A stretch of 64,000 nt of DNA from Myxococcales bacterium 68-20 (GTDB lineage Bacteria > Myxococcota_A > Polyangia > Polyangiales > Polyangiaceae). Made by a program: the position numbers and the translations under genes. Below are positions 7,871 to 15,480 of this stretch, one piece after another. Where the stretch lies: the NCBI GenBank assembly GCA_001899635.1, contig MKVQ01000019.1, positions 1-64,000 of the forward strand. Direction: 5' to 3'. How positions within the stretch are numbered: position 1 is the stretch's first letter; every line of letters begins with the position of its first letter. A model generated the notes under the pieces. The model saw only the letters and a list, made by a program, of their open reading frames with translations. It was not told the DNA's origin and did no database searches.

Positions 7871-8779
7871 TCAAAATTCGGGCGCCGGCTGGCCTCCACT
7901 CTCGGAGCCGGGCTCGTTGCCCAAGCAGAGCCCCTCGCTCCGGTACAAGAACGAGAAGCGAAAGAGGACGCGGACGAAGTCACCGAAGGAGCCGGCGGTG
8001 GTGCCGTCCGGGAGCTGGTAGAAGTCCCACTGCCCGAGCCTGGAGAGCCGTAGCTCGTCGAGCTCGTCCATCGTCACGACATCGTCGGCGTTGCCGTCGA
8101 GGTCAGCCTTCGCGAAGGGGTCGAGGCGAAGGCCCGCCGACGACGAAAGCGCCTCGCGGAACAGGTTCTCCGCCGCGAAGCGCACCGAGACCTCGTCGCG
8201 TCGTTTCTCGAGGATCGTGACGCCGCGCGCGGCAGCTCGACATCCGCCGAAGCGAGTCGCGGTGCGCAGCGAGTCGAAGCGAAGCCGAATGCGGAGCTTC
8301 CGCGTGGCGAACTCCGTCTGCTTCGTCGCCGTCGCTTCGACGATCGCGTGCGCGGGAGCGCCTTCGGCGAGCTCGATGAGATCCTTCGACGTCACCCCCT
8401 CCCCGAGGCTCGTCTCCGATCCCGGCGGTCCGAAGATGATGCCGACGTCGGGGCACTCGGCGGGCTGGATCCCGTTGAACGTCTGGACGACGCCAAGGCG
8501 TGGATCGAAGACGACGTCGCTCCTCGCGCCGCGTCCGCGGAACGAACAGATGTCGGTATCGCCGATCCGACCGAGGGTCATCGTCTTGAAGCCGAGCACG
8601 ACGCGATCGAAGCGGAGCGCCCAACGGTCCAGGGTCTCCGTTTCGGTGACACCTTCCTGCGTCTGCACGCTGACCTTAAAGGTGAACTGCACCGAGCCGA
8701 GGCCGACCGCCTCGTCCGCGGGCACACAGGCCGCGAGGGCGCCGAGCCCGAGCCATGCGCAGAGGAAAGCAGCGCGCAT
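7871..8779 (-). CDS. Lipoprotein downstream of a decayed TonB receptor
   Basis: The 302-residue product starts MRAAFLCAWLGLGALAACVPAD, with lipobox LAAC. The rest is beta-rich (VQFTFKVSVQTQEGVTETETLDRWALRFDRVVLGF) and includes an EF-hand-like acidic loop DLDGNADDVVTMDEL near the C-terminus. No family is recognised with certainty. Its ATG overlaps the stop of the receptor remnant (TGATG), so the two were once translationally coupled; this suggests a surface lipoprotein partner of a TonB-dependent receptor, in the manner of substrate-capturing lipoproteins. The receptor half is now only a fragment, so present expression is uncertain. The open frame continues far upstream in Arg-rich sequence, which is an artefact. 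Confidence 0.75.
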   Translation of the reverse strand: MRAAFLCAWLGLGALAACVPADEAVGLGSVQFTFKVSVQTQEGVTETETLDRWALRFDRVVLGFKTMTLGRIGDTDICSFRGRGARSDVVFDPRLGVVQTFNGIQPAECPDVGIIFGPPGSETSLGEGVTSKDLIELAEGAPAHAIVEATATKQTEFATRKLRIRLRFDSLRTATRFGGCRAAARGVTILEKRRDEVSVRFAAENLFREALSSSAGLRLDPFAKADLDGNADDVVTMDELDELRLSRLGQWDFYQLPDGTTAGSFGDFVRVLFRFSFLYRSEGLCLGNEPGSESGGQPAPEF

Positions 8780-9060
8780 CAGAAGCGTCCCCCGACGCCG
8801 GTGACTTCGGGCGACAGGGTGGCATCGAGCGCGCCCCCGATCCGGCCGCTCGCGCCGAGCGGGCATCGCTTCTCGAAGCACAGGTCGAGGCAAACGAACA
8901 CCGGCGTGCGCGACGGCGGAACGGCGACGAGCTGCTCGGGGAACGCGGGCTGAACCGGCCTCATCAGGGCGCCATTGTACGTCACGAAGCGCGCTCCGGT
9001 CCGCTACGCCGTCCCGAGATCCATCGAGAGCGCGACGGTGACGACGTGCGGGAGGTTCGT
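8779..9060 (-). pseudogene. 3'-end remnant of a TonB-dependent receptor
   Basis: The minus-strand translation matches the C-terminus of the intact receptor at 13075-15480: PHVVTVALSMDLG against PHVFTAALSVDLG, and AQPAFPEQLVGVPPSRTPVF against QPAFPEQLVAVPPSRTPVF. Nucleotide identity is visible across the block. The remnant has a TAG at 9004-9006 where the intact gene has TGG (Trp). It also lacks about 30 codons after EVTG and jumps directly to GGRF and the stop. Upstream of about 9060 similarity is lost. It is therefore a decayed or partial duplicate. Confidence 0.85.
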
Positions 9061-9122
9061 GCTGGTCTCGGGCCGGCACGAGCCGGCTGGTGAGCTCGGA
9101 CCTTCGCCTCGGGTCGCGCGGC

Positions 9123-10655
9123 TCAGAGCACCTGGCAGGCCTGCGCGATGCACTGCGTGGCGAGCGCAGCGCAGCGCAGCGCGTCGGGGCAATCGTCTCC
9201 GACGAGGCACGGATCGCCCGCGGCCGGCGCAGGACGACACGAGAGACCGCCGCTCTTGTCGGGCCCGCACGAGCCGGCGCATTCCGCGCTCGAGGTGCAG
9301 GCGGCTCCCACCGGTCGATCGGCCTCACAGACACCCGCGCCACCGCAGTGCAGGCCCGCACCGCAGCTCCGATCGCTCGAGCACGGCTCGCCCGCGGCGC
9401 GGGGGACGATGCATACCGAGCCGTCCTTGCCGAAGTCGCATGCGAGTCCGTCCCCGCATCGGCTGTCGATCGTGCACGGCGCGCCGGGCGCCGGCAGCGT
9501 TCCGCATACGAAGTCGGCACTGCAGCCGAGATGGCCGGCGCAGAACGGTTCTGCTGCTGCGCATGGCTGTCCCTCGCCCGGGAGCGGGAGGCACGTTCCA
9601 TTGTCGGCGTTGCAGCCGAGCCCGGGCGCGCAGACGGTCCCTCGTGCACACGGCTCGTCCTGGGCGGGGCGGGCGGTACACGCGCGAGTGCCGTCGTCGC
9701 AGAAGAGCGTGGGCTCGCAGTCACGATCTTCGACGCACGCACCGCCGCCCCCGAGCCTTGCGACGCACGTGCGGGCCCCGCCGCACGACTGGCCCTGCCC
9801 GCAGTCGCTCGCCTGCGCGCACGTGGGCGGAGGTGCAGCGCAGCTCCCAGCGGCGCAGACGAGGCCGACGGCGCACTCACCGGCTTCGGTGCACGCGGCG
9901 CCGATCGCGCCGAGCGCCACACACGAGCCGCCGAGGCATGCGAGCGGCGGCGCGCACTCTTCCGTGACCTCGCACGCCGTGCCCGCGGCCCCCTGGGGGA
10001 CGCACGTTCCCTCGGCCGGGCTGCAGACGAAGCCGCTGGCGCAGCGGAACTCGTCCTGACATTCGATCCCCTGACGGCCTGCAGCGGTGCACTTGCCTGC
10101 GACGCAACGACCGGAGCCATCGGCGCAGTACGGCGTCTTGCACGTCTCGCCCATCTTCGCCGGGTCGATCGCGAACGGGGCGCACGACGCGAAGACGACC
10201 GTGCCACTCGGAGCTCCGCACGCCGGCGTCGCCACGTCGAGCTTCGCGACGCAGGCAGTCGCCGCGGCCTTGTCGATCTTCGCTCCCGCCGTCACGAACT
10301 GGCCCCACGCAGCCATGCACTTCGCGGAGACGCGTGCGGTACAGGCAGCTAGATCGAGGGCCCCGCCCGGCACGAGCGTGCCGCAACCACAGGCCTGGGC
10401 GCGGGAGCAGATGAGCGCCGCGCTCGGAGTGCAGTAGTCGCGCTCGAGATCGCCCTCCGTCACCGGCGGCGCGTCGGGCGTCGCGTCAGGGCTGCCGGCA
10501 TCGTCCGTCGGCTCCTCGTAGGGCGGCGGCGTCGCATCCGGGCCAGCGTCGGGCGTCGGGGCGGGATCCTCGTGGGCATCGGAGCACGACGCGATCGCGA
10601 GCACGGACAAGAGCACCAGCGCACCGAGCGAACGGAAGACCGGCATGCGAACCAT
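9123..10655 (-). CDS. Large Cys-rich lipoprotein
   Basis: A 510-residue protein. Its start MVRMPVFRS is preceded by GGAAGGACGAA, a good ribosome site. The signal peptide ends in LAIASCSDA (lipobox). An acidic Pro/Asp linker (residues about 28-65) leads into a Cys-rich body of many short units such as CAPGLGCNADNGTC and CGAGLHCGGAGVCEADRPVGAAC. The spacing resembles the Dickkopf/EGF-like repeats common in myxobacterial surface proteins. Many disulfides are expected outside the cytoplasm. Such proteins probably act in surface adhesion or matrix; no enzyme motif is visible. The 3' end lies close to the receptor remnant, with no sign of an operon. Confidence 0.8.
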   Translation of the reverse strand: MVRMPVFRSLGALVLLSVLAIASCSDAHEDPAPTPDAGPDATPPPYEEPTDDAGSPDATPDAPPVTEGDLERDYCTPSAALICSRAQACGCGTLVPGGALDLAACTARVSAKCMAAWGQFVTAGAKIDKAAATACVAKLDVATPACGAPSGTVVFASCAPFAIDPAKMGETCKTPYCADGSGRCVAGKCTAAGRQGIECQDEFRCASGFVCSPAEGTCVPQGAAGTACEVTEECAPPLACLGGSCVALGAIGAACTEAGECAVGLVCAAGSCAAPPPTCAQASDCGQGQSCGGARTCVARLGGGGACVEDRDCEPTLFCDDGTRACTARPAQDEPCARGTVCAPGLGCNADNGTCLPLPGEGQPCAAAEPFCAGHLGCSADFVCGTLPAPGAPCTIDSRCGDGLACDFGKDGSVCIVPRAAGEPCSSDRSCGAGLHCGGAGVCEADRPVGAACTSSAECAGSCGPDKSGGLSCRPAPAAGDPCLVGDDCPDALRCAALATQCIAQACQVL

Positions 10656-10879
10656 TTCGTCCTTCCCTGGTCAGCGGTGACGCCGGAGCCCCCACGCTGC
10701 CGTATGCGCATATCCAGGCACCGGGACGTTTTGATCTCGAAAAAGGACGTCGCTCTCGAATTCGCTCGACGCGCGTGACCGCATCGTCCCCTCGTCCTCC
10801 TCGATCTCGGGGGGGCACGAGGACATCGGTCGACGAGGGCGAAGCTCCACGCGCCCGTCCATTGTCCTAGACTGCGGCC

Positions 10880-11572
10880 ATGCGCGGCCGTCCCCCCCGT
10901 CTCTCACGCGAGCTCGTCGTGGACGCGGCCGTCGGCGTCGTTCGTGCCGAAGGGCTCGAGGGGCTCACGATGCGCGCCCTCGCCGAACGGCTCGAGGCCA
11001 CCCCGATGGCGCTGTATCGCCACGTGGGGGACAGCGACGAGCTCGCCCTCCTCGTGATCGACGCCATCTTCTCGGAGCTCGTACTCCCCGAGGAGGGGCT
11101 CCCCGCGCTCGAGTGGCTCCGGGAGCTCGCTCGTCGGATCCGGGCCCTCGGCCGAGCGCACCGCGGCGTCATGGACGTCCTCCTCGAGGAAGGTCCGGTC
11201 GTGAAGAGCACGCTGGTCATTCTCGACCGCGTCGTGCGCAAGCTCCACGAAGCCGGAATGAGCTGGAAGACCGCGTGCGCCGTTCACAACACGTTCCTCT
11301 CCTGGCTCGCGGCGTCCATCCGGCGCGAAGAGAGGTGGGCCGCTCGTACGGACGGAGAAAAGCGCCCGCTCCGCCGGTTCCTCGCCATCGCCGCGGAGAT
11401 GCCTCGATCCGACTATCCCGGACTGGCGCAGGTGATGCCGCACATGCCCGGCGACGACGTCGGTGCCGAATTCGAGCTGAGCCTCGACTTCATGCTCGAC
11501 GGCGTCGCGGCGACGATCGCCCGGGAGCAGGCCCGGCGGGAGAAACGCCGGACCGCTCCTCGCGAGCGCTGA
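10880..11572 (+). CDS. TetR/AcrR-family transcriptional regulator
   Basis: A 230-residue regulator. The N-terminal helix-turn-helix spans about residues 8-56 (RELVVDAAVGVVRAEGLEGLTMRALAERLEATPMALYRHVGD), where the MALYRHV recognition helix is typical of the TetR-like subgroup with a TetR_C ligand domain. The remaining helical part should bind a small molecule. The gene is convergent with the amidohydrolase gene, with only 5 bases between their stop codons. The perfect palindrome in front of the amidohydrolase is the obvious candidate operator. No similar palindrome is seen before the regulator itself, so autoregulation is not evident. Confidence 0.9.
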   Translation: MRGRPPRLSRELVVDAAVGVVRAEGLEGLTMRALAERLEATPMALYRHVGDSDELALLVIDAIFSELVLPEEGLPALEWLRELARRIRALGRAHRGVMDVLLEEGPVVKSTLVILDRVVRKLHEAGMSWKTACAVHNTFLSWLAASIRREERWAARTDGEKRPLRRFLAIAAEMPRSDYPGLAQVMPHMPGDDVGAEFELSLDFMLDGVAATIAREQARREKRRTAPRER

Positions 11573-11577
11573 TCGGC

Positions 11578-12993
11578 TCAGGCTGACGCGCCGGCGTCTC
11601 CGGTCGCGCTCTTGCCACCGCCCATGTCCCAGCTCTCTTCGAGACGATGGACCTCGCCGAGGAGCGAGGCGACACCGCCGGCGCGCTCGACGAGCGCATC
11701 GCGCGAGGCGACGAGCCGCCGGCGGAGGAGCGCGAGATCCTGACCGACGAGCACGCCGCCTAGCTTGACCGGAACGCCGCGGACGATGACCGTCTCCACG
11801 TTGCCCGCGTGCGCCTGCATCACGACCGCCTCACGCGGCCGGTTGAGCGGCGTCAGGTTGAGAGCGTCGGCCGAGAGGACGACGAGGTCCGCGTCCTTTC
11901 CCGGCCGCAGCGAGCCGACTACACGTCCGAGCCCGATCGCCTCCGCAGCATCGGTCGTCGTCGCCCGGAGCATCCGCGCTGCCTTGAGCGGAAGCGAGGA
12001 CGGCAGGCCGACGCGCGCGTTCTCGGCCCCTCGCTCCGCCTGCATGGCGAGTCGCATGGCCGTGAACATGTCGCCGCCGTTGCTCGAGACGACGTCGCAG
12101 CCGAGCGACCAGCGCACTCCTGCGCACAGCGCGCGGCCGACGACCGGAAACCCCATTCCCATCTGAAGCTCCGTCTCCGGCGTCGCCGAGATCGAGCCGC
12201 CGCTGTCCCGGATCGCGCGGAGGTCGTCCTCGGACGAGAACGTGCAGTGCACGTACAGCATGTCGGCTCCGAGCAAGCCTTCGGCCGCCATGAGCTGGAC
12301 CTCGCTCTTGTTCACCGGCCAGGCGGAGCAGTGCAGCGTGATGGGCACTCCGAGCGCGCGGGCCGAGCGGATCTCGTCCACGCTCACTTCCCACGGGACC
12401 TGCATCTCCGTGAGCGCCACGCCCATCCGTACGAGGCGGTCGTCGGAGGCAAGCCGCGATCGGCGCAGCCGCTCGGCATCGCGGATCCGCGCGCGATGGT
12501 CCGGGAGATCCGGCGAAGGTGTCGGCCCGGCGGCATAGCCATACGCGAAGAGAGCGCGACCGCCGGCGGCCTCGAGCCCGTCGATCGCGGCGTCGGCGTG
12601 ATCGGGCGAGTAGATGCAGTGAGAGTAGTCGACGAGGGTCGTGATGCCGGCATCGAGCGCCTCGAGCGCGCCGGCGTGGTTGGCCACGAGGATGTCCTCC
12701 GGCCGGAACAGCGGCGATAGCTTGACGCGAACGGCCGCGAGATAGTCCATCACCGTCCAGTCGGCCCCGAGCGCGCGCAGCGGCGTCTGCCAGGTGTGGC
12801 GGTGGGTATCGACGAGGCCGGGCATCACGAGCTTGCCCTCGAGCTCGAGGACGCGCGCGTCCGAGACCGACAAACCGGGCCCGATCGCCGCGATCTTTCC
12901 CCCTTCGATCAACACGTCCGCGCTCGGGAGGTCCCCGAGCTCGTCGTCGCACGTCACCACCGTTGCGCCCCGAAGCAGCCAGCGTTCGCTCAT
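11578..12993 (-). CDS. Amidohydrolase of the SsnA/chlorohydrolase-like group
   Basis: A 471-residue metal-dependent hydrolase. The conserved metal-binding set is visible: DTHRH with His64 and His66, His221 in ITLHC, His249 in YVHC and Asp300 in GCDVVSSN. The N-terminal and C-terminal beta-sandwich pieces (VLIEGGKIAAIGPGL and LRPGKDADLVVLSAD) are standard for the superfamily. Members deaminate or dechlorinate purine- or triazine-like rings; the exact substrate cannot be read here. The gene is convergent with a TetR regulator and has a perfect palindrome overlapping its likely promoter, so substrate-induced derepression is a reasonable inference. Confidence 0.9.
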   Translation of the reverse strand: MSERWLLRGATVVTCDDELGDLPSADVLIEGGKIAAIGPGLSVSDARVLELEGKLVMPGLVDTHRHTWQTPLRALGADWTVMDYLAAVRVKLSPLFRPEDILVANHAGALEALDAGITTLVDYSHCIYSPDHADAAIDGLEAAGGRALFAYGYAAGPTPSPDLPDHRARIRDAERLRRSRLASDDRLVRMGVALTEMQVPWEVSVDEIRSARALGVPITLHCSAWPVNKSEVQLMAAEGLLGADMLYVHCTFSSEDDLRAIRDSGGSISATPETELQMGMGFPVVGRALCAGVRWSLGCDVVSSNGGDMFTAMRLAMQAERGAENARVGLPSSLPLKAARMLRATTTDAAEAIGLGRVVGSLRPGKDADLVVLSADALNLTPLNRPREAVVMQAHAGNVETVIVRGVPVKLGGVLVGQDLALLRRRLVASRDALVERAGGVASLLGEVHRLEESWDMGGGKSATGDAGASA

Positions 12994-13003
12994 GACCTAG
13001 TTA

Positions 13004-13022
13004 TAGTATACGTCGTATACTA
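13004..13022. promoter_or_regulatory. Perfect 19-bp palindrome, probable TetR operator
   Basis: TAGTATACGTCGTATACTA is a perfect inverted repeat (9-bp arms around one central base) in a GC-rich background. It ends 10 bases before the amidohydrolase start codon. On the minus strand its TATACT could serve as the -10 element, so a bound repressor would block the promoter. The size and symmetry fit TetR-family operators. Confidence 0.75.
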
Positions 13023-13074
13023 ATCCAGTCGATCGTCGAGCGAGCGCAAGGGAGACCGGACGGGGACGCGTGGA

Positions 13075-15480
13075 TCAGAAGCCTCCCTCGACCCCGAGGC
13101 TCGGAACGCTCACCGGACCGATCACGCGCTCGTAGCATCCCGGCACCGCCGGAGTACTGCCCGGCAACGCGAGCGCCGTCCGGCACGCATAGCCGGTGAC
13201 CTCGCGGGATAGCGTGGCGTTGAGCGCCTCCAGCACGACCCCGATCCAGCCGTCCCTGCCCATCTGCCATCGCTTCTCGAGGCGCAGGTCGGCGCGAACG
13301 AATACCGGCGTACGCGACGGCGGAACGCCGACGAGCTGTTCGGGGAACGCGGGCTGAGCCGCGCTCATCGGAATGCCACTGTACGTCACGAAGCGCGCTC
13401 CAGCGCGCCACTGCTTCCCGAGATCCACCGAGAGCGCGGCGGTGAAGACGTGCGGGCGGTCGTACGCCGAAAGGACTCGCTGTCCGTTCACGGTGCGCAT
13501 CGAACGCGAGAGCGTGTACGAGGCGAGGCCCGCGATCCGCTGCGTGAGCTTCCGGCGAACGCCGAGCTCGAGTCCGAACGCCGAGCCGCGGCTCTTCCCG
13601 AGGAGGGAGTCGCTCCGCTCGATGTCGACCAGCTCGACCTGCGCGGTGCCGAGCGCGTCGTTGAGGTCGTAGAACGCATTGTGGAATACCGTTCCCGTCG
13701 CGGTGAAGTCGCTCGGGAGGTCCACCTCGACGCCGGCGCTCGTCTGGACGGCGCGCTGGAGCCCGCCACGGAGGCGCGCGATCGTGATCCCCGGCAGCGC
13801 GATCGGCGTCGACGGCGGCTGGCTCGCGACCCCGTACGCATGGATGATCCGCAGGCGATCATTCACGGCGAAGCGGGCCGTCAGCCGAGGGTCCACCGCG
13901 AGCGCACGAGCAGGCCCCGACCCATAGACGTCGAAGCGAACGCCGGGGACGATCTCCATCTTCGGGATCATCGTCAGCACCGCATCCACCCTCGCGCCGG
14001 TCGCATAGTCGACGCGCTCGACGAAGACGCTGCGCTGGCGGACGACGACGTCGTCATCATCGGCGTACGCCGGGAGCGAATCCGCGGTGTACGAGTCGAC
14101 GACGAGATCCGCACCGGTTCGCAGCACGACCGTCCGTGACAGCGGCTGGGTGAGCTCGACACGCGCCCCCGTCATGACGTCGGTCGCGGCTCGGCGCGCA
14201 TCCACCCGGGTGCGATCGAAGCCGACCGTGGTCGCGGCGCGAAGCCGGCCGCCCTGAGGCAGCGTGCGATCCCAGCGAACGTCCGCGCGATGGAACTCGG
14301 ACGCGAAGAGGACGCGTGTGACGTCGCGAGTCACCGGGCTCGCGTTCGGATCGGCGAGGAGCCCACGCGTGCTCGGGTCGAGCGTCTGGCGCTGAGCCGC
14401 GAAGTCGTACGAGCCGAATCCGAGGACCGAGATCGTGTCGCGATCGCTGAGCGAATACGACACGCGCGCCTGGTAGTCGCGGTAGTCGAGCGTGGTGTCC
14501 GAGGACAACAGGCTGAAGAGCGCCGCCGTGTACGAGTAACGTGCGGCCGCGAGCGCCGAGCCCTTGCCGCCGGCGAAGGGCGCCTCGACGAGCCCGCCCG
14601 CGTCGATCAGCCGGAGCTGCCCTTCGCCGTGGAGTCGATCCCCGGGCGGCATCGCCTGCGACTCGACGATGCCGCCGGCGTATCGCCCCAGCGCGGCGGG
14701 ATAGCCACCCCGATGGAGCTCGGTCTTCGCGATGAGCCCGGGATGCACGACGGCCGGGCCGAGCCCGAAGTGAAAGAGGTACGGAACTCGGACGCCTTCG
14801 AAGAAGTAGCCGACGTTCCCCGGCGGCGCGCCGCGCACGTAGAAATACGGCAGGCCGGTGAGCACCGGCGTCATTCCGGGCATCGCCTCGATCGCGCGGA
14901 ACGGATCGCCGAAGGCGCCGGGGAGCTGACGTACCTCGGTGCGGGCGAGCGAGTCGGCCACGCCTGCCCCCACCGTGGCACGACCGCCGCGCACGATGAC
15001 GTCGTCGGGGCGCTTTGCGCCCCGTGGACCAGGAGACGGTGTCGCCGGCTGGTCAGGCTCGGGCTCGGGCTCGGGCTCGGGTTCGGGCTCGCGAGCGGGA
15101 GCGGGCGGGGCGGCCTTCGTGAAGTCGAGGCGAAAGCGGACGGTGACGGCGATCGGCCGGCCGTCTCGCGTTGCTGGGACGAAGCGCGCGCCGCGTACGC
15201 TGTCGGTCGCGACGGAGGCGAACGGCTCGAAGCCCTCGAGGACGCGGATGTCCTCCACGTCGCCGGACACATTCACGCTCACCGCGAGGATCACGGCAGC
15301 GTCGCCCTCCGCGCCCGGCGGATATGGCGCGGCGACGGACTGGACGAGCCGCGGCGGGACGATCTGCGAGACCTCCGGAGGCGCCTCGGCGTCTGCCCTC
15401 GCGGGCCCCGGCGTCGCGAGGGCAAGCGCGAAGGCAGCGACGGTGAACGCATGCCGCACTGGGACACACCCACGGATCAC
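13075..15480 (-). CDS. TonB-dependent receptor with N-terminal TonB-like domain
   Basis: An 801-residue outer-membrane protein. A signal peptide (ending near ARADA) is followed by a TonB C-terminal-like domain (about 38-118: PPRLVQSVAAPYPPGAEGDAAVILAVSVNVSGDVEDIRV), a Glu-Pro linker, a plug domain (about 165-290: VRQLPGAFGDPFRAIEAMPGMTPVLTGLPYFYVRGAPPGNVGYFFEGVR) and a beta-barrel ending in Phe. Fusion of a TonB-like domain to the receptor recurs in Myxococcota. It should import a siderophore, vitamin or peptide using proton-motive force. No lipoprotein gene follows it, although one follows the truncated copy at 8779. The amidohydrolase gene lies just downstream on the same strand but has its own operator. 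Confidence 0.9.
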   Translation of the reverse strand: MIRGCVPVRHAFTVAAFALALATPGPARADAEAPPEVSQIVPPRLVQSVAAPYPPGAEGDAAVILAVSVNVSGDVEDIRVLEGFEPFASVATDSVRGARFVPATRDGRPIAVTVRFRLDFTKAAPPAPAREPEPEPEPEPEPDQPATPSPGPRGAKRPDDVIVRGGRATVGAGVADSLARTEVRQLPGAFGDPFRAIEAMPGMTPVLTGLPYFYVRGAPPGNVGYFFEGVRVPYLFHFGLGPAVVHPGLIAKTELHRGGYPAALGRYAGGIVESQAMPPGDRLHGEGQLRLIDAGGLVEAPFAGGKGSALAAARYSYTAALFSLLSSDTTLDYRDYQARVSYSLSDRDTISVLGFGSYDFAAQRQTLDPSTRGLLADPNASPVTRDVTRVLFASEFHRADVRWDRTLPQGGRLRAATTVGFDRTRVDARRAATDVMTGARVELTQPLSRTVVLRTGADLVVDSYTADSLPAYADDDDVVVRQRSVFVERVDYATGARVDAVLTMIPKMEIVPGVRFDVYGSGPARALAVDPRLTARFAVNDRLRIIHAYGVASQPPSTPIALPGITIARLRGGLQRAVQTSAGVEVDLPSDFTATGTVFHNAFYDLNDALGTAQVELVDIERSDSLLGKSRGSAFGLELGVRRKLTQRIAGLASYTLSRSMRTVNGQRVLSAYDRPHVFTAALSVDLGKQWRAGARFVTYSGIPMSAAQPAFPEQLVGVPPSRTPVFVRADLRLEKRWQMGRDGWIGVVLEALNATLSREVTGYACRTALALPGSTPAVPGCYERVIGPVSVPSLGVEGGF
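15056..15091 (-). repeat. Hexanucleotide repeat encoding a Glu-Pro linker
   Basis: Six tandem GGCTCG units (one with a C-to-T change) encode alternating Glu and Pro between the TonB-like domain and the plug. A simple repeat of this kind is prone to slippage in steps of two codons, which would vary linker length without breaking the frame. Confidence 0.8.

What the first reader, a model, noticed from the sequence alone, without database searches (positions are those of the whole stretch)
8779..9060. Remnant of a TonB receptor overlapping an intact lipoprotein gene
The last part of a receptor, with TGG-to-TAG and an internal deletion of about 30 codons, matches the intact receptor 4 kb away. 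It ends in TGATG on the start of a lipoprotein gene, whereas the intact receptor has no lipoprotein after it. A receptor-lipoprotein operon appears to have been duplicated or split, leaving the lipoprotein with the dead copy.
Basis: partly seen in the sequence, partly recalled or inferred. Interest (0 to 1): 0.55.

Follow-up and report, generated by a model that had tools for sequence, protein, structure and literature searches.

The report
Split receptor–lipoprotein operon with duplication scar
In this bacterium about 4 kb of extra DNA lies between two genes that sit directly together in its relatives, and a short dead copy of the end of the first gene was left in front of the second; it is a clear but ordinary evolutionary scar.

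Summary
On the minus strand, 8779 to about 9066 is a decayed copy of the last ~126 codons of the receptor at 13075–15480: 90 codons remain, with a TGG-to-TAG stop and in-frame losses of 3 and 33 codons. It ends in TGATG on the start of an intact lipoprotein gene (7871–8779). In the six same-genus genomes with close matches to both genes, receptor and lipoprotein are directly joined by TGATG, without the ~4.0 kb found between them here (Cys-rich lipoprotein, TetR regulator, amidohydrolase). So an ancestral operon was split in this lineage, leaving the receptor's 3' end on both sides of the insert. Fragment and intact receptor are sisters (ultrafast bootstrap 99); their differences spread evenly over codon positions (16/16/15; dN/dS 1.05), so the fragment looks dead. 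The lipoprotein is still constrained (62 of 63 positions invariant in six relatives are kept). Its ribosome-binding site lies in the receptor's last codons, so a clean split needed those codons twice: the best reason for the scar, but inferred. Closest published pattern: insertion with long target duplication.

The parts
8779..9066 (-). Dead, 5'-truncated copy of the receptor's 3' end (psi-R); codon-alignable part 8779-9051; TAG at 9004-9006; 3-codon loss at 8835/8836 and 33-codon loss at 8796/8797; TGA at 8779-8781
7871..8779 (-). Intact lipoprotein gene L (302 aa, lipobox C18, EF-hand-like loop), ancestral partner of the receptor; start codon overlaps the fragment's stop (TGATG)
8777..8796 (-). 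Ribosome-binding region and start of L inside the last codons of the fragment (GGGGGA here; GGAGG in five of six relatives, GGGGGG in G001)
13075..15480 (-). Intact receptor R (801 aa): N-terminal TonB_C-like domain, plug, barrel; orthologue of the receptor that precedes L in relatives
9067..13074 (.). ~4.0-kb insert between R and psi-R/L, absent from the same place in relatives
9123..10655 (-). Insert gene C: Cys-rich lipoprotein (Dickkopf_N-like repeats); same strand as L, its stop 343 nt upstream of L's start
10880..11572 (+). Insert gene T: TetR-family regulator
11578..12993 (-). Insert gene A: amidohydrolase of the PRK08204 subfamily
13004..13022 (.). 19-bp palindrome TAGTATACGTCGTATACTA in front of A; its 17-base core occurs at this one place in the genome; probable operator for T (inferred)

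Best explanation
The ancestor had a two-gene operon: receptor R followed by lipoprotein L, overlapping as TGATG, with L's ribosome-binding site inside R's last codons (shown in relatives; co-transcription inferred). In this lineage, after it split from its nearest sampled relatives, about 4.0 kb of other DNA (genes A, T, C) came to lie between R and L, and R's 3' end was left on both sides of it (shown). The copy joined to the full R stayed a working gene end; the copy in front of L had no 5' part and decayed (shown by its lesions and codon pattern). L stayed under selection (shown) and probably still starts from the ribosome-binding region kept in the dead tail, transcribed with C or from a new promoter (inferred). 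The most likely route is one insertion with a long (~400 bp) target duplication, by capture of foreign DNA in a repaired break or by one-sided homologous recombination (inferred). Because R's stop and L's start share bases, only an insertion that doubled R's end could leave both genes whole (inferred).
For: R directly upstream of L in 6 of 6 same-genus genomes with close matches to both, TGATG in all six, and R directly upstream in 15 of the 30 non-own L-like places fetched. Same neighbours and no insert in G003, G005 and G006. A has no full-length match above 29% in the six relatives, T at best 30% by E-value (41% over 94 residues), C only partial matches. Fragment and R are sisters, ultrafast bootstrap 99. 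Psi-R differences by codon position 16/16/15, against 14/8/26 for R-G006 and 11/6/24 for G003-G006; Fisher p 0.038 and 0.018; dN/dS 1.05 against 0.23 and 0.22 over 89 codons. Changes polarised by G003=G006: psi-derived 8/9/4, R-derived 2/2/6, shared by R and psi 4/2/9, conflicting 2/0/0. L: window-derived dN/dS 0.34; 62 of 63 columns invariant in six relatives kept. pS psi-R 0.167 against R-G006 0.375.
Against: No intermediate state was seen; a larger duplication followed by deletion would leave the same remains. No donor with A, T and C together was found. The insert's edges share no 9-mer and it is not compositionally foreign: GC 0.710 against 0.684 for the window, GC3 0.83-0.88 among neighbours at 0.81-0.92. 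Polarised by G006 alone, the few R-derived changes also look unconstrained (44 codons, 3/2/2, dN/dS 0.87), so the counts are small. L has the highest window-branch dN/dS of the eight genes measured this way (0.34; G006 and G003 branches 0.19 and 0.16); R, kinase and g19793 rise too, OmpA, g17230 and g16274 do not rise above both, so some relaxation of L is not excluded. Predicted pairing of L's ribosome-binding region is weaker here than in the five relatives tried (-8.6 against -9.4 to -12.1 kcal/mol). In G001 only R and L, not the flanking genes, matched. Expression of L is untested.
Confidence: 0.78

Rival explanations
1. The whole receptor, or receptor plus lipoprotein, was first duplicated in tandem; later deletions removed most of one receptor (and one lipoprotein), and genes A, T and C arrived separately.
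For: Fragment and receptor are sisters, as any duplication predicts; further deletions did occur inside the fragment.
Against: Needs at least three events. No trace of the receptor's earlier part was found upstream of the fragment (9067-9122 against 120 bp of R: 205 of 500 shuffles score as high), nor of a second L after R (260, 57 and 242 of 500 shuffles reach the score for the three L starts tried).
Confidence: 0.2
2. One-sided homologous recombination (homology-facilitated illegitimate recombination) or single-crossover integration of a molecule carrying a receptor 3' end plus A, T and C: the intact receptor's tail would be donor-derived and the dead tail native. This is a sub-version of the best explanation, and its odds lie inside that one.
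For: Gives exactly full gene, insert, truncated tail, old downstream gene; the process is published (PMC3240628 abstract; proposed for orphan immunity genes in PMC5361080, passages).
Against: The two tails are each other's closest relatives, so the donor would have to be of the same lineage and carry R next to A; none was found.
Confidence: 0.3
3. Site-specific element that replaces a gene's 3' end, as prophage e14 does in icd.
For: Same layout: intact gene, insert, displaced 3' end.
Against: No integrase among the three insert genes; no shared 9-mer at the edges.
Confidence: 0.04
4. The fragment is a kept small gene or leader whose translation couples to L (not exclusive with the best explanation of its origin).
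For: Both deletions are multiples of three; an ATG after the TAG leaves an open frame into TGATG; the ribosome-binding region lies in it.
Against: Codon positions change evenly, dN/dS about 1; no separate copy was seen in the stretches fetched from the six relatives. Two in-frame deletions would arise by chance about once in nine.
Confidence: 0.08
5. Assembly artefact.
For: The genome is in 52 contigs.
Against: The two copies differ at 17% of aligned sites and lie in one 233,857-base contig.
Confidence: 0.02

Closest known systems
Insertion with long target duplication (Nobusato et al. 2000, Gene; not seen itself, only as cited in passages of PMC1643837 and PMC3154945)
   Same: Genes present in one genome and absent from another, with a long direct duplication of the local sequence.
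   Different: Described there as often tied to restriction-modification genes in Helicobacter; here no such genes, and one flanking copy has decayed.
Orphan immunity genes displaced by incoming effector-immunity modules in Vibrio cholerae (PMC5361080, passages)
   Same: An insertion upstream shifts the old downstream partner away; in one modelled step a 3' end of the old effector is shifted back as well.
   Different: There the old effector is replaced; here the receptor remains whole and the partner lipoprotein starts 4.3 kb beyond its stop.
Prophage e14 in icd (PMC4759930, passages)
   Same: The gene's 3' end exists twice, on either side of inserted DNA.
   Different: A phage using site-specific recombination at 11-bp repeats; no integrase or edge repeat found here.
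TonB-dependent receptor with co-encoded lipoprotein (surface lipoprotein review PMC7857515: search listing with start of abstract only; the general pattern is recalled)
   Same: Receptor gene next to a lipoprotein gene as a conserved pair.
   Different: This lipoprotein matched no Pfam family at E<=0.1; substrate and surface exposure are unknown.

Membership tests
Pseudogene fragment | Similar to a working gene, reading frame disrupted | tested here: met
   TAG, 5' truncation, 36 codons lost
Pseudogene fragment | No coding constraint | tested here: met
   dN/dS 1.05 over 89 codons; differences 16/16/15 by codon position; small sample
Conserved receptor-lipoprotein operon | Receptor and lipoprotein adjacent in related genomes | tested here: met
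   6 of 6 same-genus genomes with close matches to both, TGATG in all six; 15 of 30 fetched non-own L-like places; the second, more distant pair in G007 has a short gap, not an overlap
Conserved receptor-lipoprotein operon | Co-transcription | not testable with these tools
   No expression data
TonB-dependent receptor | Plug domain and beta-barrel | tested here: met
   At E<=0.1 Plug in 6 of 6 sequences of alignment A6 (best 5.9e-7), barrel in 1 of 6; for the window protein itself Plug is below the curated cut-off (16.9 against 23.9 bits) and the structure model is of low confidence (mean pLDDT 41)
Insertion with long target duplication | Insert absent from relatives at the same, otherwise syntenic place | tested here: met
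   G003, G005, G006; blastn of the insert against 20 fetched stretches gave two short matches, both in the G005 stretch (68 and 40 bp, E 6e-4)
Insertion with long target duplication | Long direct duplication flanking the insert, single in relatives | tested here: met
Insertion with long target duplication | Restriction-modification genes in the insert (frequent association, not a requirement) | tested here: not met
Homology-facilitated illegitimate recombination | One homologous end, one non-homologous end | tested here: inconclusive
   No shared 9-mer at the edges; shorter overlaps not tested; donor unknown
e14/icd-type site-specific integration | Integrase in the insert and an attachment core repeat | tested here: not met

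The most novel reading that the evidence does not exclude
Overlapping, translationally coupled operons can only be opened by insertions that duplicate the upstream gene's 3' end, because the downstream gene's ribosome-binding site lies there; the dead tail then persists as the orphan gene's translation leader. Such 'leader pseudogenes' would be a recognisable class of scar marking split operons.
Probability: 0.25. Interest if true: 0.45.

Novelty: new member of a known kind. Interest (0 to 1): 0.3.

Why it matters
It is a polarised and roughly dated case of a conserved operon being broken while both partners survive. It lets one ask whether R and L still work as a pair when no longer adjacent, and it gives a search rule (short 3' gene tails in front of orphan partners) for finding other split operons. 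It also points to an uncharacterised lipoprotein family that travels with a group of myxobacterial TonB receptors.

Tried and rejected
A donor for the insert. A was sought in 377 genomes of the phylum at E<=1e-60: 6 others match (39-43% identity), none of them in the window's family. T was sought in 377 at E<=1e-25: 2 others (48-49%). C was sought in 108 genomes of the family at E<=1e-15: own plus 7 others, none of the 11 other genomes of the genus. The loci brought in for C and T, with up to 1.5-kb flanks, held no A, R or L, and the six for A no T. No donor found. In the six relatives at E<=0.001 there are only weaker or partial matches: A 27-29% over most of its length, and 40% and 53% over 82 and 64 residues; T 24-41%; C 31-49% over 50-202 residues.

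Fold of L: AlphaFold model weak (mean pLDDT 54); Foldseek against PDB gave 0 matches at E<=0.001; a profile search of PDB gave 4 EF-hand proteins (three calmodulins, one calcyphosin) at E 0.16-0.62. EF-hand models match 4 of 16 family members at E<=0.1, not the window's L itself. Fold of R: mean pLDDT 41, not searched; sequence searches of PDB with R gave nothing meaningful. L in plasmids: no match.

Promoters and terminators: in 8600-13200 the scan found two sigma-70-like sites (0.3 expected), both at the palindrome before A, none in front of L, and one weak terminator-like site at 8899-8915 (0.7 expected); not used as evidence.

Discarded outputs: searches used a wrong frame and were redone; alignment A3 had two rows out of frame and was not used; one search failed on file names; loci L152 and L153 were fetched but not analysed.

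In one search, of 30 non-own L-like places (of 55 listed) 15 had R directly upstream, 8 had no R (one of these with only 7 bases of upstream sequence held), and in 7 L was not found again at the cut-off, so R was not judged.

Full report
What is there. On the minus strand of 7871-15480 the order is: receptor R (15480-13075), amidohydrolase A (12993-11578), TetR regulator T (opposite strand, 10880-11572), Cys-rich lipoprotein C (10655-9123), a receptor fragment (about 9066-8779) and lipoprotein L (8779-7871). The fragment aligns with R over 269 columns at 79.9% identity, E 1e-66. In a codon alignment 90 of the last 126 codons of R remain; 3 and 33 codons are missing in frame and one tryptophan codon is TAG. 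Its stop overlaps the start of L as TGATG.

What relatives show. L was sought in the window's genome and 95 relatives; 44 of these 96 genomes match at E<=0.001, and the own genome has a single match. In six of the 11 other genomes of the genus the match is close (G006, G003, G005, G007, G009, G001; 43-68% identity), and there the receptor, 62-82% identical to R, lies directly upstream with TGATG at the junction in all six. Of the other five, three have only weak L matches (E 1e-17 to 5e-11) and two none. G007 also has a second, more distant pair whose genes are adjacent but do not overlap. A wider look at 30 of the 55 non-own L-like places found R directly upstream on the same strand in 15, no R in 8 (one with only 7 bases held), and 7 not judged; the 10 best by E-value all have it. 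In G003, G005 and G006 the pair is flanked by kinase and OmpA genes on one side and g15788, g16274, g17230, g19793 and g20523 on the other, as in the window, with nothing between R and L. G009 keeps most of these but gave no OmpA or g20523 match and has a kinase-like gene upstream of R; the G007 contig begins inside R and has kinase but no OmpA match after L; in G001 only R and L matched.

The insert. About 4.0 kb (9067-13074) separates R from the fragment. In the six relatives A has no full-length match above 29% identity (partial ones of 40% and 53% over 82 and 64 residues), T at best 30% by E-value (41% over 94 residues in G006), and C only partial matches. Blastn of the insert against the 20 fetched stretches gave two short matches, both in the G005 stretch (68 and 40 bp, E 6e-4). 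In wider samples A is found at E<=1e-60 in 6 others of 377 genomes of the phylum, none in the same family; T at E<=1e-25 in 2 others of 377; C at E<=1e-15 in 7 others of 108 genomes of the family, none in the genus. The insert's composition is like its surroundings. No integrase is among its three genes, and its edges share no 9-mer.

The fragment is dead. In a tree of tails the fragment and R are sisters with ultrafast bootstrap 99. Their differences fall 16/16/15 over the three codon positions, against 14/8/26 (R-G006) and 11/6/24 (G003-G006); Fisher p 0.038 and 0.018. dN/dS is 1.05 against 0.23 and 0.22. Changes polarised by sites where G003 and G006 agree fall 8/9/4 on the fragment and 2/2/6 on R. 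Polarised by G006 alone, the fragment has dN/dS 1.73 (52 codons) and R 0.87 (44 codons, seven changes), so R's own recent changes are too few to show its constraint in this tail. pS of 0.167 between the copies, against 0.375 between R and G006, puts the duplication after the split from the nearest relatives, very roughly half-way. The sample is small (89-90 codons).

The lipoprotein is alive. L keeps 62 of the 63 columns that are invariant in its six relatives. Changes on the window branch have dN/dS 0.34, the highest of the eight genes for which this could be computed, against 0.19 and 0.16 on the G006 and G003 branches. R (0.19 against 0.10 and 0.09), the kinase and g19793 also rise; OmpA, g17230 and g16274 do not rise above both. 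So L is constrained, but a mild relaxation is not excluded. Part of this branch predates the split of the operon. L has a lipobox (C18); 4 of 16 family members match an EF-hand model at E<=0.1, the window's own L does not.

Why a scar. In five of six relatives the receptor's last codons hold a GGAGG just before the start of L (GGGGGG in G001), and stop and start share bases. DNA placed between the genes would cut off either the receptor's end or the lipoprotein's start unless the receptor's end is present twice. The arrangement here meets that demand: the full receptor ends normally, and the second copy still gives L a G-rich site, with weaker predicted pairing (-8.6 kcal/mol against -9.4 to -12.1 in the five relatives tried). 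That this need selected the event is inference.

Mechanism. A single insertion with a long target duplication explains the remains with one event. The pattern is published, often with restriction-modification genes (Nobusato et al. 2000, seen only as cited in passages of PMC1643837 and PMC3154945). One-sided homologous recombination could make the same structure (PMC3240628, abstract) and has been proposed for immunity genes displaced in Vibrio (PMC5361080, passages). A whole-receptor duplication with later deletion is possible but needs more events, and no trace of the receptor's earlier part was found. The e14/icd case (PMC4759930, passages) looks alike but rests on site-specific recombination.

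Literature. Searches for Labilithrix with TonB (1 paper), for TonB-dependent receptor, lipoprotein, myxobacteria and operon (9 papers), and for at least four of gene remnant, TonB-dependent receptor, pseudogene, horizontal gene transfer and Myxococcota (0) listed no title or abstract start about this locus. Only an open-licence library was searched, and I opened none of those ten papers.

Verdict. Observation confirmed, interpretation supported and sharpened. It is a well-resolved example of a known kind of event.

Noticed in passing
window 13004-13022: 19-bp palindrome TAGTATACGTCGTATACTA, 10 bp before the amidohydrolase start; its 17-base core occurs at this one place in the genome. Probable operator of the TetR regulator at 10880-11572.
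   Followed up: partly
window 7871-8779 and relatives (alignment A1): Uncharacterised lipoprotein family with conserved cysteines and an EF-hand-like loop, often directly downstream of a TonB receptor that carries an N-terminal TonB_C-like domain.
   Followed up: partly
window 13075-15480, residues 42-172: The receptor carries a TonB C-terminal-like domain near its N-terminus, and this part resembles the start of the myxochelin receptor model MxcH, far below that model's cut-off.
   Followed up: no
window 9123-10655: Cys-rich lipoprotein with Dickkopf_N-like repeats; patchy in the family (own plus 7 of 108 genomes at E<=1e-15), absent from the other genomes of the genus at that cut-off.
   Followed up: partly
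L-like places without R (e.g. L031, L032, L033, L047): A second L subfamily (with a GEDYIEQEIPA-like start) occurs without the receptor upstream; its neighbours were not identified.
   Followed up: no
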